The notes below the pieces were generated by a model. That model saw only the letters and a program-made list of their open reading frames with translations, had not been told where the DNA came from and searched no databases. From positions 688,535 through 752,534 of the forward strand of contig PLJL01000001.1 in NCBI GenBank assembly GCA_003140215.1: a stretch of DNA of 64,000 bases. Reading direction: 5' to 3'. The position numbers and the translations under genes were made by a program. Positions within the stretch are counted from its first letter, which is position 1; every line of letters starts with the position of its first letter. The DNA is from Vulcanimicrobiota bacterium (lineage in GTDB: Bacteria; Vulcanimicrobiota; Vulcanimicrobiia; Vulcanimicrobiales; Vulcanimicrobiaceae). Below, in pieces: positions 60,411 to 64,000 of this stretch.

Positions 60411-61178
60411 TCAGGCCTCCCGCGTCGACCACAGTTTGGTGCTGGCCACGATCGCGACCAGCGCGATCGCCCACGCGCCGAGCGCGCGGGCCCAGGGGTC
60501 CAAATGAAGCACGGAATGGATTCCGCCGCCGGCATGGACGCCCGATGACGAAAGATCACCGAGCCAGGCCAGCGGGTTGAGGTAGTTCAACGCCACGATG
60601 ACGTAGTGCAGCAAATCGGGGACCGGCGCCGCGATCACACCGCCGCCGATCAAGAACACGGCCCAGCTCAGCGCGGCGACGCGTGCGCCGTGCCCCTCGA
60701 GTCGGGCGGCGGCCACCGAGACGAGCCCGTACCACATCGCGGCTCCGCCCATCCCAAGCGCGAAGAGGGTCAGCGATCGAGCGGCATCGACGTGGAAGTG
60801 CGGCATCAAGCCCGAGGCGATCACGCCCACCACGATCGCTGCCAGCACGATCGCGTAGCCGGCGAGGATCGCCGCAAGATCGACCGCGACGTACCGCCAG
60901 GCGATTGCCTCGCGGCTGCGCGGCCGCGTCCAGATGATCGCCGTGGTGGTGTGCTCGGCATTCAGGTTCCCGGCCAGGGCCGTGGCGACGATGATCCCGC
61001 CGAACACCGCTATTCCGACCAGCGAGCTGAGGTTCTCGGATCCGAATGACGAGCCGCCGGCGTTGACATGCGCATGACTCCAATAAATCCCCATCAGCGT
61101 AAACGCCAAGCATCCTAGGCTGGACAGACCGAACCAAAACAGGACGCGCCGGGCACGCAAGATTTCGACGTATTCCAT
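60411..61178 (-). CDS. ABC-2 type transporter permease
   Basis: A 255-residue inner-membrane protein with six hydrophobic segments, including LFWFGLSSLGCLAFTLMGIYW near the N-terminus. The mid-domain AEHTTTAIIWTRPRSREAIAW is typical of ABC-2 permeases. Its ATG overlaps the ATPase stop by one base (TGATG). With that ATPase it forms an exporter under the control of the GntR gene. Substrate unknown. Confidence 0.85.
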   Translation of the reverse strand: MEYVEILRARRVLFWFGLSSLGCLAFTLMGIYWSHAHVNAGGSSFGSENLSSLVGIAVFGGIIVATALAGNLNAEHTTTAIIWTRPRSREAIAWRYVAVDLAAILAGYAIVLAAIVVGVIASGLMPHFHVDAARSLTLFALGMGGAAMWYGLVSVAAARLEGHGARVAALSWAVFLIGGGVIAAPVPDLLHYVIVALNYLNPLAWLGDLSSSGVHAGGGIHSVLHLDPWARALGAWAIALVAIVASTKLWSTREA

Positions 61179-62047
61179 CAGCGGTTCTCCCCGTCGTCGA
61201 CGGCGTCCAAGAAAAGGTCTTCGAGCGAGCGGTCCAGCACGCGCACGCCGGTCGCGCCGAGCGCGCCGAAGCGCGCCGCGACCGCGTCGGCTCGGCCGTT
61301 GGCATGGGCGCGCACGCTGGTGCCGGCACGTTCGACGCGCATCTCGGCCTCCATCGCACCCAAATCGGGGATGATCTTGTCGAACGTCGCCTCGACGACG
61401 CGCGAGGCTTCGCGCAAGTCATCGAGCACGCCCGAGACGACGATCTTGCCGTCGCGCATGATCGCGACGCGGTCGGCGGCGCGATCGATCTGGCTGATCT
61501 GGTGCGAGGAGATCAAAATCGTAGCGCCGCTCGTCGCGGCATCGATGAGGATGTCCAAAACGACACGCTGCATCACCGGGTCGAGTCCGCTGGCGGGCTC
61601 GTCGAGGATCAGGATCGACGGGTGGTGCGTAAGCGCAAGGATCAGCGCGAGCGCCGTTTGCTGGCCCTTGGAGAGCCGGGCCGCCTTCTTGCGGCCGTCG
61701 AGCCGAAAGGTCGCCAGCAGCTCTTTGGCGCGCGCCGCGTCGTGCCCGGGCTGCGAACGGCGCGCGATCTCGAGATGCTGGTCGACCGTCATCCAGCCGT
61801 AAAGGGCGGGCCGCTCCGGCACGTAGCCCAGCGTTGCGAACGTCTGCGGCGTGAGCGGCTCACCGTCGAAACGCACCTCGCCGGAATCAGCGCGCGCGAA
61901 ACCGAGCAAACATTTGAAAGTCGTCGTCTTGCCGGCGCCGTTGCGCCCGAGCAGCCCGCATATCGAGCCGGCCGGGATTTCGAGGCTGACGTCGTCGACC
62001 GCGAGCACGTCGCGGTAGCGCTTGGTCAGACCGCTGATCGCGATCAC
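61178..62047 (-). CDS. ABC exporter ATP-binding protein
   Basis: A 289-residue ATPase starting at GTG. Walker A is GLLGRNGAGKTTTFKC, the Q-loop region YVPERPALYGWMTV, the signature LSKGQQTAL, Walker B ILILDEPASGLDP, and the H-loop ILISSHQISQ. A 70-residue C-terminal extension is also present. The pattern matches the YtrB/CcmA-like exporters that follow YtrA-type GntR regulators. It overlaps the GntR gene by four bases (GTGA). Confidence 0.92.
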   Translation of the reverse strand: MIAISGLTKRYRDVLAVDDVSLEIPAGSICGLLGRNGAGKTTTFKCLLGFARADSGEVRFDGEPLTPQTFATLGYVPERPALYGWMTVDQHLEIARRSQPGHDAARAKELLATFRLDGRKKAARLSKGQQTALALILALTHHPSILILDEPASGLDPVMQRVVLDILIDAATSGATILISSHQISQIDRAADRVAIMRDGKIVVSGVLDDLREASRVVEATFDKIIPDLGAMEAEMRVERAGTSVRAHANGRADAVAARFGALGATGVRVLDRSLEDLFLDAVDDGENR

Positions 62048-62448
62048 TTCTGTTCCTCCGGATACCAGCGGGCGATCGACTCTGCGACGATCGCGCGAAC
62101 TTCGTTCAAGGTGACTCCTAGCGAGCGGGCTTCGCGCACGGCGTCGCCGACCGCGCTCGTTGCGACGTCGGTGGCGGCGCGGCGAGTCTCGCCGACGGCC
62201 CCGTTCTCGCGGACAAACGATCCGCGACCCGGCGCGGTGGCGATGATGCCGTCCCGCTCGAGCTCGCGGTAGACGCGTGCGACCGTGTTGGGGTTGAGCT
62301 TGAGCTCGTGCGCGAGCCCCTTCACCGTCGGGAGCCGCTCGCCGGCGCTGAGCGCGCCGATGGCCACGGCTCGTTTGATCTGTTCGGTCAGCTGCGCGTA
62401 GAGCGGGGCCCCACCGTGGGGGTCGACCGAGAAAAAGGCCGGCGGCAC
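62044..62448 (-). CDS. GntR-family repressor, YtrA-like subfamily
   Basis: A 134-residue regulator: the winged helix PLYAQLTEQIKRAVAIGALS, GERLPTVKGLAHELKLNPNT and VARVYRELERDGIIATAPGRGSFV, plus a short C-terminal dimerisation helix. This short form without a ligand domain is the YtrA subfamily, which commonly autoregulates ABC transporter operons. GTG start with no Shine-Dalgarno of its own but only six bases after the leader ORF stop, so translation is probably coupled. The two operators upstream are its likely binding sites. Confidence 0.92.
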   Translation of the reverse strand: MPPAFFSVDPHGGAPLYAQLTEQIKRAVAIGALSAGERLPTVKGLAHELKLNPNTVARVYRELERDGIIATAPGRGSFVRENGAVGETRRAATDVATSAVGDAVREARSLGVTLNEVRAIVAESIARWYPEEQK

Positions 62449-62454
62449 CAGCGG

Positions 62455-62571
62455 TTAGAGCGTGACGCCCCAGCCACGGAACAGGCGGGAGTCTTGGGCG
62501 ACGCGGACGAGGGTCGGGGCCGGGGTCGGCCGGCTGGGCTGCGGGCGGTAGACGGGGCGGTTCTTGTCCAT
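62455..62571 (-). CDS. 38-residue leader ORF ahead of the GntR gene
   Basis: A 38-residue ORF with GGAGG six bases before its ATG. The sequence is Pro/Arg-rich at first (KNRPVYRPQPSRPTPAP) and ends VAQDSRLFRGWGVTL. Its TAA lies six bases before the GntR GTG, which has no ribosome-binding site. The most likely function is translational coupling; proline runs could also allow regulated stalling. No homologous family is recognised. Confidence 0.65.
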   Translation of the reverse strand: MDKNRPVYRPQPSRPTPAPTLVRVAQDSRLFRGWGVTL

Positions 62572-62601
62572 GCGGGGCCTCCAAGGGCGGCGGTCTCAGT
62601 C

Positions 62602-62641
62602 GTACTAGTTGAACTAATACGTAATGTACTAGTTGAACTAA
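62602..62641. promoter_or_regulatory. Two identical 16-bp operators (GTACTAGTTGAACTAA), 24 bp apart
   Basis: GTACTAGTTGAACTAA occurs at 62602-62617 and again at 62626-62641. Each contains TAGTT-G-AACTA, a perfect palindrome about a central G. One copy sits between the -35 and -10 of the reverse-strand promoter and the other around the expected start of transcription, the classic placement for repression. By position they are binding sites of the adjacent GntR protein. They may also affect the divergent mini-permease gene. Confidence 0.85.
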
Positions 62642-62651
62642 CACATGTCAA
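62623..62651 (-). promoter_or_regulatory. Sigma-70-type promoter of the GntR-ABC operon
   Basis: On the reverse strand TTGACA (62651-62646) is followed after exactly 17 bases by TACATT (62628-62623). The -35 is consensus and the -10 matches at four of six positions. It reads toward the leader ORF (ATG at 62571). This is the strongest promoter-like sequence seen in the window and stands in an AT-rich island. Confidence 0.85.
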
Positions 62652-62681
62652 GGGACCGGGAGAAAGTTTTTCGGACCCACC

Positions 62682-63278
62682 ATGAGACCGGGCGTGGGCC
62701 GCCCGCTTCGTATTCTGGACCGGTACATGCTGCGCGCCGCGGCGCCGGCATTGGCCGCGGCGATGCTCGCGGTGGGGGTGCTGTGGCTGGAAGGGCCGAT
62801 CGCCGCCTCGACCGGCGGCGCTTACGCGCTGGCGGTCGGGCTCGCAGTCGTATTCGGGCGGCTCGTTCGCAGCGGCGAATACGGCGCGCTGCTGCAAGCC
62901 GGCATCTCGCCGCGCCGAATCGTCGCGGCCGTCGTCGCGATAGCGTGTGCGCTCGCCGCCATCGAAGCGGTCGCAGCCTGCGCGTTGCGCCCGCCGGTCG
63001 TGCGCACGCTGTATGCCGGTTACGTGCTGGCGGCGTTGCAGCTCCCGCTGCTGGCTTCGCTGGCGCTGCCGATCTCGGCGCGGTCGCGGCGCGAAGAGCC
63101 GTGGGCCCTCGTGGTGCTGTTGCTCCTGGCATATACCGTCGCAATCATCGCGGCGGCGGTGCTGGGCGCACGAGCGGGTTGGGCTCCGGGCCTGGAGTGG
63201 CTCTTCGTCGACGCCGCGCTCGTTGCTGCGGACATCGCACTCTATCGCGACCTGATCGCGCCGCACCGCACGCCGTAA
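62682..63278 (+). CDS. LptF/LptG-like mini-permease
   Basis: A 198-residue membrane protein. Its N-terminus RILDRYMLRAAAPALAAAML and the stretch YGALLQAGISPRRIVAAVVAIA resemble the start and the coupling-helix region of LptF/LptG lipopolysaccharide-export permeases (LDRYLLRE..., ALRAAGIS.RRI). About six hydrophobic segments follow closely. The periplasmic beta-jellyroll domain of about 150 residues is absent, so it is roughly half the normal length. It starts 31 bases past the GntR operon promoter, divergently. Function unknown. Confidence 0.65.
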   Translation: MRPGVGRPLRILDRYMLRAAAPALAAAMLAVGVLWLEGPIAASTGGAYALAVGLAVVFGRLVRSGEYGALLQAGISPRRIVAAVVAIACALAAIEAVAACALRPPVVRTLYAGYVLAALQLPLLASLALPISARSRREEPWALVVLLLLAYTVAIIAAAVLGARAGWAPGLEWLFVDAALVAADIALYRDLIAPHRTP

Positions 63279-63280
63279 CG

Positions 63281-64000
63281 TCAGCCCGAGAACGGGTCGC
63301 CCAGTTGGACGTGGGCGGGCGGGCCGCCAACCGTGCCGCGCTCGACGTCGAAGTCGTGCGGCTTGCCGTCATAGGCGCGCAACTGCGTCTGGTACGTTCC
63401 GTACTCCCACCAGTAGCGGCCGTCGAGCTTGTCGATCACGTCGCCGGTCCGCAAACCCGCGACGTACGCCGGACCGCCGGGGCGCACGAGCGCGCGCATG
63501 TAGCCGTCGGCCGGCTTGAACAACACGTAGAAGTAGGTCGGGCGCGGCGCGGCCGGGTCGAACGCCAGCCCGCGTTCGAACACGTCGCTCGCCAATGCGG
63601 GGTGCTCGCGTTGCCACACGCGCACACGGAACAGCGCGTCGAGCGCCGCTGCACGGACGGGGCCTTGGGCGTGCCACTGATCGACGCTCCACCCGGCGCA
63701 GTCCACCAGCTCCAGGCCGACGTCGCGCCCGCCGCGGCCCAGCGCCGTGACGGTGAGCTTCAGCGCGGCGGCGTACGGCTTGGCCCGACAGTCCGCGCCG
63801 GCCGGATCACCGTTCGCGGCGACAACGCGATAGCTCGGCCAACCGCGCGCGATCGACGCGCTCACCGCGTGCGCCGCGAGCGCCCCATCGGGCGTGCCGT
63901 CGTCGAAAACGGCCAGCGCACGGGCGGCCGCCGGCGGCGCGTACAAGCCGGTTTCGAGCGTCGCGGCTGCGGCGGCACGCGGCGGGAACGGCGGCGCGCC
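63281..64000 (-). CDS. PDZ-domain-containing protein, 3' part (5' end outside window)
   Basis: The frame is open to the right edge, giving 239 residues here. The C-terminal 70 residues form a PDZ-like domain: MRALVRPGGPAYVAGLRTGD, VIDKLDGRYWWEY and DFDVERGTVGGPP. The preceding part (ALKLTVTALGRGGRDVGLELVDCAGWSVDQW) is not assigned. A TTG at 63946 could be a start, but coding character continues upstream, so truncation by the window edge is preferred. Convergent with the mini-permease, two bases apart. Confidence 0.65.
   Translation of the reverse strand, partial: GAPPFPPRAAAAATLETGLYAPPAAARALAVFDDGTPDGALAAHAVSASIARGWPSYRVVAANGDPAGADCRAKPYAAALKLTVTALGRGGRDVGLELVDCAGWSVDQWHAQGPVRAAALDALFRVRVWQREHPALASDVFERGLAFDPAAPRPTYFYVLFKPADGYMRALVRPGGPAYVAGLRTGDVIDKLDGRYWWEYGTYQTQLRAYDGKPHDFDVERGTVGGPPAHVQLGDPFSG

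What the first reader, a model, noticed from the sequence alone, without database searches (positions are those of the whole stretch)
62455..62651. Autoregulated GntR exporter promoter with twin operators and a proline-rich leader ORF
A TTGACA-N17-TACATT promoter has one copy of GTACTAGTTGAACTAA in its spacer and an identical copy at the likely start site. The first translated frame is a 38-residue Pro/Arg-rich peptide with its own strong ribosome-binding site, ending six bases before a GntR gene without one. Repressor synthesis may thus be tuned both at the operators and through translation of the leader, so that ribosome stalling or slowing, for example by an antibiotic, would alter exporter levels.
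Basis: partly seen in the sequence, partly recalled or inferred. Interest (0 to 1): 0.65.

Follow-up and report, generated by a model that had tools for sequence, protein, structure and literature searches.

The report
Conserved GWG leader peptide before repressor
A tiny protein-coding gene just upstream of a self-regulated transporter repressor is a real, strongly conserved gene ending in the same few amino acids, and the same ending recurs in front of several unrelated regulators throughout one little-studied class of soil bacteria, which suggests an undescribed way of controlling how those regulators are translated.

Summary
On the minus strand of a Ca. Eremiobacterota genome, a TTGACA-N17-TACATT promoter carries two identical 16-mers. 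Their palindromic core occurs nowhere else in the genome. A 38-codon ORF with a strong ribosome-binding site ends 6 nt before an SD-less GntR/YtrA-type repressor gene, followed by an ABC ATPase and a probable ABC-2 permease.

New: the leader is deeply conserved, but not in its Pro/Arg-rich part. Every leader-bearing GntR orthologue examined in two families of the class (83 scored) ends F-x-G-W-G-[PVI]-x-[LFIVA]-stop, with synonymous variation. In the window's family (99 genomes) a pattern for this ending gives 134 hits, against 4 with the stop shifted one base and 12 with the pattern reversed. It gives none in 18 unrelated genomes. The same ending also closes short ORFs before BlaI/BlaR1, PadR, sigma-factor-linked and CGNR-linked operons, and some stand-alone genes. 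No Pfam family describes it.

Best explanation: a recurrent leader-peptide family whose translation delivers ribosomes to the repressor gene. One genus has lost the leader, and there GntR carries its own SD. The invariant residues at the stop suggest nascent-chain control of termination, which is unproven. Stand-alone copies keep a trans-acting small protein open. Antibiotic sensing is untested.

The parts
62647..62652 (-). -35 hexamer TTGACA
   Evidence: read directly; TTGAC present upstream of the leader at 81 of 83 GntR loci
62626..62641 (-). upstream operator copy (palindromic core TAGTTCAACTA), in the spacer and overlapping the first 4 bases of the -10
   Evidence: binding inferred
62624..62629 (-). 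-10 hexamer TACATT, 17 nt from the -35
   Evidence: read directly
62602..62617 (-). downstream operator copy, identical, starting at the expected transcription start
62578..62582 (-). Shine-Dalgarno GGAGG of the leader
   Evidence: duplex energy -9.3 kcal/mol
62455..62571 (-). leader ORF, 38 aa, MDKNRPVYRPQPSRPTPAPTLVRVAQDSRLFRGWGVTL, stop TAA
   Evidence: (profile E 2.2e-11)
62455..62481 (-). conserved 3' end of the leader: F-R-G-W-G-V-T-L-stop
62044..62448 (-). GntR-family (YtrA-type) regulator, 134 aa, GTG start, no SD, 6 nt after the leader stop
   Evidence: PF00392 E 4.8e-13; NCBIfam Rv1152 and PmtR below their cut-offs; SD energy +1.2
61178..62047 (-). ABC transporter ATP-binding protein, overlapping the end of the GntR gene
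   Evidence: PF00005 E 1.8e-27
60411..61178 (-). probable ABC-2 type permease
   Evidence: PF01061 E 2.4e-4, below the gathering score

Best explanation
The leader ORF is a genuine protein-coding first cistron. It belongs to an undescribed family of short ORFs in the class that holds the window's genome, defined by the ending F-x-G-W-G-[PV]-[KRTS]-[LFIV]-stop. In this operon the GntR protein probably represses its own promoter at the two operators (inferred from sequence). After transcription, ribosomes load at the leader's strong SD, terminate at its stop and re-initiate a few bases on at the SD-less GntR start, so that repressor synthesis depends on leader translation (inferred; indirect evolutionary evidence). 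[quoted passage not shown] The most likely role of the motif is therefore to slow or gate termination and so set re-initiation on the repressor gene; a ribosome held at the stop would cover the GntR start, lower repressor synthesis and raise exporter expression (inferred, unproven). Rough weights: conserved coding ORF 0.97; translational coupling 0.75; nascent-chain control at the stop 0.4; antibiotic sensing 0.1.
For: Conservation: a leader with the motif precedes every leader-bearing GntR orthologue examined in two families of the class (83 scored), including all 14 orthologous loci over 50% identical in the second family. Ending specificity in 99 genomes: 134 hits, against 4 with the stop shifted by one base and 12 with the pattern reversed; 0 in 18 unrelated GC-rich genomes. 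Protein-level selection: F, G, W, G invariant in 135 of 135 while all four Gly codons and both Phe codons are used (retrieval required F-x-GWG, but profile and GntR-anchored searches found the same ORFs). Information is concentrated in the last 9 residues. Coupling: stop-to-GntR gap 1-20 nt in 69 of 83 loci; leader SD <=-5 kcal/mol in 94%, GntR SD in 33%; the leaderless genus g12 has GGAAAGGACGCGATG directly before GntR with operators kept, and the leaderless paralogue in the window's genome has CGGAGG. Precedent: arrest peptides whose conserved motif abuts the stop and whose arrest needs the stop codon (PMC10987492); TnaC (PMC8429421).
Against: Stand-alone copies with a hairpin and/or a convergent gene right after the stop (L189, L192 second copy, L193 second copy, L197) leave nothing downstream to control. 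Several BlaI leaders have 2-3 extra residues after the motif, so exact abutment to the stop is not universal. A third of the GntR starts do have some SD, and a few gaps are 30-121 nt. No stalling, translation or binding data exist. Synonymous variation in the last 9 codons is lower than upstream (pS 0.19 against 0.45-0.49 within the genus), so a nucleotide-level role is not excluded. No conserved RNA fold was found.
Confidence: 0.5

Rival explanations
1. The peptide itself is the product: a small trans-acting protein whose C-terminal GWG segment binds a partner (ribosome, membrane protein, protease or chaperone). It is placed first in stress-regulated operons so that it is co-expressed with them; coupling to GntR is only a by-product.
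For: The same ending occurs before unrelated genes: GntR, BlaI/BlaR1, PadR, an S9 peptidase, ECF-sigma-linked DUF4097 operons, CGNR/ABATE-linked glyoxalase genes, a sigma factor. Stand-alone genes are followed by hairpins or convergent genes. Genus g12 lacks it at both loci examined.
Against: It is nearly always the first ORF and mostly within about 20 nt of the next start; the N-terminal part is essentially unconserved; the window's own genus keeps it at GntR but lacks it at the ECF-linked operon, so loss is locus by locus. No partner identified.
Confidence: 0.3
2. Plain bicistronic coupling: the short ORF only delivers ribosomes to the repressor gene and its amino-acid sequence is irrelevant.
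For: Strong leader SD, weak or absent GntR SD, short gaps, natural replacement by an SD in g12. Such 'delivery' ORFs are discussed in the coupling review PMC12548453.
Against: Invariant F-x-GWG in 135 of 135 across two families and several operon types, with synonymous variation, and 134 hits against 4 for a one-base shift of the stop.
Confidence: 0.1
3. A precursor of a modified peptide (RiPP) or another exported peptide, with the ABC transporter as its exporter.
For: Conserved C-terminal segment on a short ORF next to an ABC-2 type transporter; one copy lies upstream of a YcaO gene (L119).
Against: The window's genome has neither PqqD-type (RRE) nor YcaO genes, and neither family follows the presence of the motif across the 18-19 genomes tested. 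Most copies sit beside regulators, not transporters or maturases.
Confidence: 0.06
4. An antibiotic-sensing arrest leader, with drug-stalled ribosomes changing exporter expression.
For: Regulators associated with the motif belong to families often linked to drug or cell-envelope stress (GntR/YtrA, BlaI, PadR); known uORFs sense ribosome-targeting antibiotics (PMC12121999, listed).
Against: No direct evidence; the motif's position at the stop fits termination control as well as drug-dependent stalling.
Confidence: 0.1

Closest known systems
[quoted passage not shown]
   Same: Short upstream ORF; conserved C-terminal residues directly before the stop; arrest reported to need the termination codon
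   Different: Those precede sec/yidC genes and carry N-terminal export or membrane signals; this one precedes transcription regulators and is hydrophilic, Pro/Arg-rich; the motif is different and stalling is not shown
TnaC leader peptide (E. coli tna operon; PMC8429421)
   Same: Short leader, arrest at the stop codon depends on residues in the tunnel, controls a downstream operon
   Different: Different residues; acts through Rho/transcription, with a long spacer; here the next gene begins within a few bases
B. subtilis ytrGABCDEF (PMC12772383)
   Same: A small ORF (ytrG) in an operon with a YtrA-type GntR repressor and an ABC transporter
   Different: YtrG is described as a small transmembrane protein; the leader here has no hydrophobic segment
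RAPP/RAPG arrest peptides (ApdA, ApdP, ApcA; PMC7897499, PMC10951233)
   Same: One C-terminal motif recurring in upstream ORFs
   Different: Their targets are protein-localization genes; motif unrelated
Apidaecin and other proline-rich antimicrobial peptides
   Same: RPVYRPQP near the N-terminus resembles apidaecin (Pfam PF00807, E 0.085, 13.5 bits, below the 23.1-bit cut-off)
   Different: Restricted to a few species of the genus; the conserved part of the family is the other end of the peptide

Membership tests
YtrA-type GntR repressor operon | GntR winged-helix domain in a short (~130 aa) protein | tested here: met
   134 aa, PF00392 E 4.8e-13; best NCBIfam match Rv1152 family, below its cut-off
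YtrA-type GntR repressor operon | co-transcribed ABC transporter | tested here: met
   overlapping ATPase gene (PF00005) and adjacent permease (weak PF01061)
YtrA-type GntR repressor operon | repressor binds inverted-repeat operators in its own promoter | tested here: inconclusive
   palindromic sites conserved in position upstream of orthologues and only at this locus in the genome; binding not measurable here
Translationally coupled gene pair | short gap and weak or no SD at the downstream start | tested here: met
   6 nt, +1.2 kcal/mol; gaps 1-20 nt in 69 of 83
Translationally coupled gene pair | downstream expression depends on upstream translation | not testable with these tools
   needs reporter mutants; indirect support from leader loss with SD at GntR in g12
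Stop-codon arrest (regulatory nascent) peptide | upstream ORF with conserved C-terminal residues next to the stop | tested here: met
   128 of 135 have exactly 3 residues after GWG (the GntR set was retrieved independently of stop position)
Stop-codon arrest (regulatory nascent) peptide | ribosome stalling shown | not testable with these tools
   no data
Sec/YidC monitoring arrest peptide | N-terminal signal or transmembrane segment | tested here: not met
   N-terminal part is hydrophilic, 13% Arg and 13% Pro
RiPP precursor | maturation enzyme encoded nearby or in the genome | tested here: not met
   no PqqD/RRE and no YcaO in the window's genome; presence of neither follows the motif; other maturase types not tested
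Apidaecin-type antimicrobial peptide | match above the Pfam cut-off | tested here: not met
   13.5 bits against 23.1; similarity not conserved in relatives
Any described small-protein family | hit in Pfam, NCBIfam, PHROGs or PDB | tested here: not met
   Pfam and PHROGs scans of 32 members gave only single chance-level hits; the window's own peptide has none in NCBIfam; no PDB match to the profile

The most novel reading that the evidence does not exclude
A lineage-wide regulatory nascent peptide, F-x-G-W-G-P-K-L-stop, used as a common module: it gates termination and re-initiation on unrelated regulators (GntR, BlaI, PadR, sigma-factor-linked and CGNR-linked operons), so that one ribosome-borne signal resets many stress regulons by withholding their regulators.
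Probability: 0.3. Interest if true: 0.85.

Novelty: new variant of a known kind. Interest (0 to 1): 0.62.

Why it matters
Leader peptides are usually tied to one operon. Here one C-terminal motif is shared by first cistrons of several unrelated regulatory operons across a whole bacterial class, and no family in the libraries searched describes it. If it acts as a nascent chain at the stop codon, it would link translation termination to many stress regulators at once and give a new motif for studying ribosome-nascent-chain control. If it acts in trans, it is a new conserved small-protein family. Either way it can be tested directly, because a cultivated member of the same phylum exists (PMC9758169).

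Tried and rejected
(1) Chance ORF or irrelevant leader: rejected by class-wide conservation and the stop-shift control. (2) Pro/Arg-rich segment as the functional part: rejected, it is the variable part. (3) Attenuator or conserved RNA structure: Rfam gives only a sub-threshold CRISPR-repeat match elsewhere in the region; RNAalifold finds no compensatory pair; the window RNA folds no better than shuffles (z -0.86). (4) RiPP: PqqD and YcaO absent from the genome and not co-distributed. (5) Release-factor-specific stop: TGA is rare in GntR leaders (1 of 83, against 18 of 42 for window genes) but occurs in other contexts, so not a rule. (6) Antimicrobial peptide: only a sub-threshold apidaecin match in the window species. 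(7) Spread on plasmids: no match for one representative peptide. (9) The first motif pattern was mis-phased by one base and was kept as a control.

Full report
WHERE IT IS. The window lies in a 3.9-Mb, 7-contig genome; the closest named relatives of its GntR protein are Candidatus Eremiobacterota (WPS-2) MAGs. The operon is on the minus strand: promoter with twin operators, leader ORF, GntR gene, ABC ATPase, probable ABC-2 permease.

OBSERVATION. TTGACA (62652-62647), 17 nt, TACATT (62629-62624). Two identical 16-mers with the palindromic core TAGTTCAACTA lie at 62626-62641 and 62602-62617, 24 bp apart; chance expectation in the window is 0.05. The core occurs only here in the genome, and one-mismatch matches elsewhere are single, so the regulator looks purely local. 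Similar sites (CTAGT/ACTAG) stand upstream of the leader at 77 of 83 orthologous loci, against 18 after shuffling, and a TTGAC element at 81 of 83. Autoregulation is therefore well supported by position, although binding is not shown.

THE LEADER IS CONSERVED, BUT AT ITS END. Upstream regions of GntR orthologues show the ORF in every leader-bearing member examined of the window's family and in all 14 orthologous loci (over 50% identity) of a second family of the class. In the alignment only F-x-G-W-G is invariant. Position by position from the stop, information is high in the last 9 residues and low further in; the Pro/Arg-rich N-terminal part is variable in sequence and length, 34-52 aa overall. 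Among 135 motif ORFs, F, G, W and G are invariant while both Phe codons and all four codons at each Gly are used; retrieval of the 135 required F-x-GWG, but the same ORFs were first seen through the GntR gene or a profile. Hence selection acts on the peptide. A caveat: synonymous differences in the last 9 codons are fewer than in the rest, so some nucleotide-level constraint may be added.

SPECIFICITY. The pattern F-x-GWG-x-x-x-TAR gives 134 hits in 84 of 99 genomes of the family (51 of 55 good-quality ones), with 12 hits for the reversed pattern. A mis-phased version with the stop one base off gave 4. With TRR stops, 13 of 14 genomes of the second family match; the four genomes of another family in the same order have none; other classes of the phylum are at control level. 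Eighteen unrelated genomes, mostly Streptomyces, have none.

OTHER CONTEXTS. Profile and pattern hits led to the same ending in front of: BlaI/MecI plus BlaR1 M56 peptidase genes with their own inverted repeats (L113, L117, L118, L120, L121, L125, L126); PadR genes (L111, L130); an S9 peptidase (L112); a DUF4097/PyrK-PyrD-like operon divergent from an ECF sigma factor (L135-L154); a sigma-factor gene (L188); glyoxalase-like genes with a divergent CGNR/ABATE regulator (L185, L198, L199); a YcaO gene (L119) (Pfam). Some copies are stand-alone, with hairpins or convergent genes directly after the stop (L189, L192, L193, L197). These contexts were sampled, not exhaustively counted. No library recognises the family.

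COUPLING. The stop-to-GntR gap is 1-20 nt in 69 of 83 loci. Leader starts have a strong SD (median -7.3 kcal/mol, 94% at or below -5); GntR starts do not (median -3.6, 33%; +1.2 in the window). Genus g12 has lost the leader: there the operators are kept and GntR has GGAAAGGACGCGATG (8 loci), and the leaderless paralogue in the window's own genome has CGGAGG. This natural replacement is the best available evidence that the leader supplies translation initiation to GntR. The difference in SD energy between leaderless and leader-bearing GntR starts is modest (p 0.026) and the g12 loci are not independent.

MECHANISM. Shown: a conserved coding ORF with an ending fixed relative to the stop. Inferred: autoregulation and coupling. 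Inferred more weakly: the ending acts as a nascent chain on termination and so gates re-initiation. Precedents exist for motif-stop arrest peptides that need the termination codon (PMC10987492) and for TnaC (PMC8429421). With a gap of a few bases, a ribosome held at the stop would cover the GntR start. Against a purely cis role stand the stand-alone copies and the two or three extra residues in several BlaI leaders. Loss is partly locus-specific: the window's genus has the motif at GntR but not at the ECF-linked operon. No conserved RNA structure was found.

ALTERNATIVES. A trans-acting small protein is the main rival (0.3). A RiPP is disfavoured: the window's genome has no PqqD or YcaO, and neither family follows the motif. 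Pure delivery of ribosomes with an irrelevant peptide is contradicted by the conservation. Antibiotic sensing is untested.

VERDICT. The functional part is different from what was proposed, and the finding is broader than one exporter.

Noticed in passing
L061 (G000:C4:1812000-1815500): Leaderless GntR/ABC paralogue operon in the same genome (60% identical GntR), with a related operator (GTACTAGTGTACTAG) and its own SD CGGAGG.
   Followed up: partly
62682-63278 (+): Divergent 198-aa gene weakly matching LptF/LptG (E 3.7e-4, below cut-off) starts only 30 nt from the -35 of the leader promoter; its promoter may overlap the operators.
   Followed up: no
63281-64000 (-): ORF open at the window edge containing a PDZ-like stretch (by eye only).
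   Followed up: no
62571-62510 (-): N-terminal RPVYRPQP of the leader resembles apidaecin (sub-threshold Pfam match); similar RPxYRP or RPYRPEP stretches occur in some other leaders but are not generally conserved.
   Followed up: partly
GntR leaders of the class: Stop codons are 59 TAA, 23 TAG, 1 TGA, while TGA ends 18 of 42 long window ORFs.
   Followed up: partly
L135-L154: A conserved operon divergent from an ECF sigma factor (DUF4097 membrane protein, a second small membrane protein, PyrK/PyrD-like genes) begins with an F-x-GWG ORF in many genomes of the family.
   Followed up: partly
L184, L192, L193, L200 (second family of the class): Acidic stand-alone or hairpin-followed members (R-S-T-L-V-R ... 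F-x-GWG-[PV]-K-[LI]) form a distinct subgroup that may have its own function.
   Followed up: partly
L112: An S9 peptidase gene with BlaI-type inverted repeats in its promoter and an F-x-GWG leader, although no BlaI gene is next to it.
   Followed up: no
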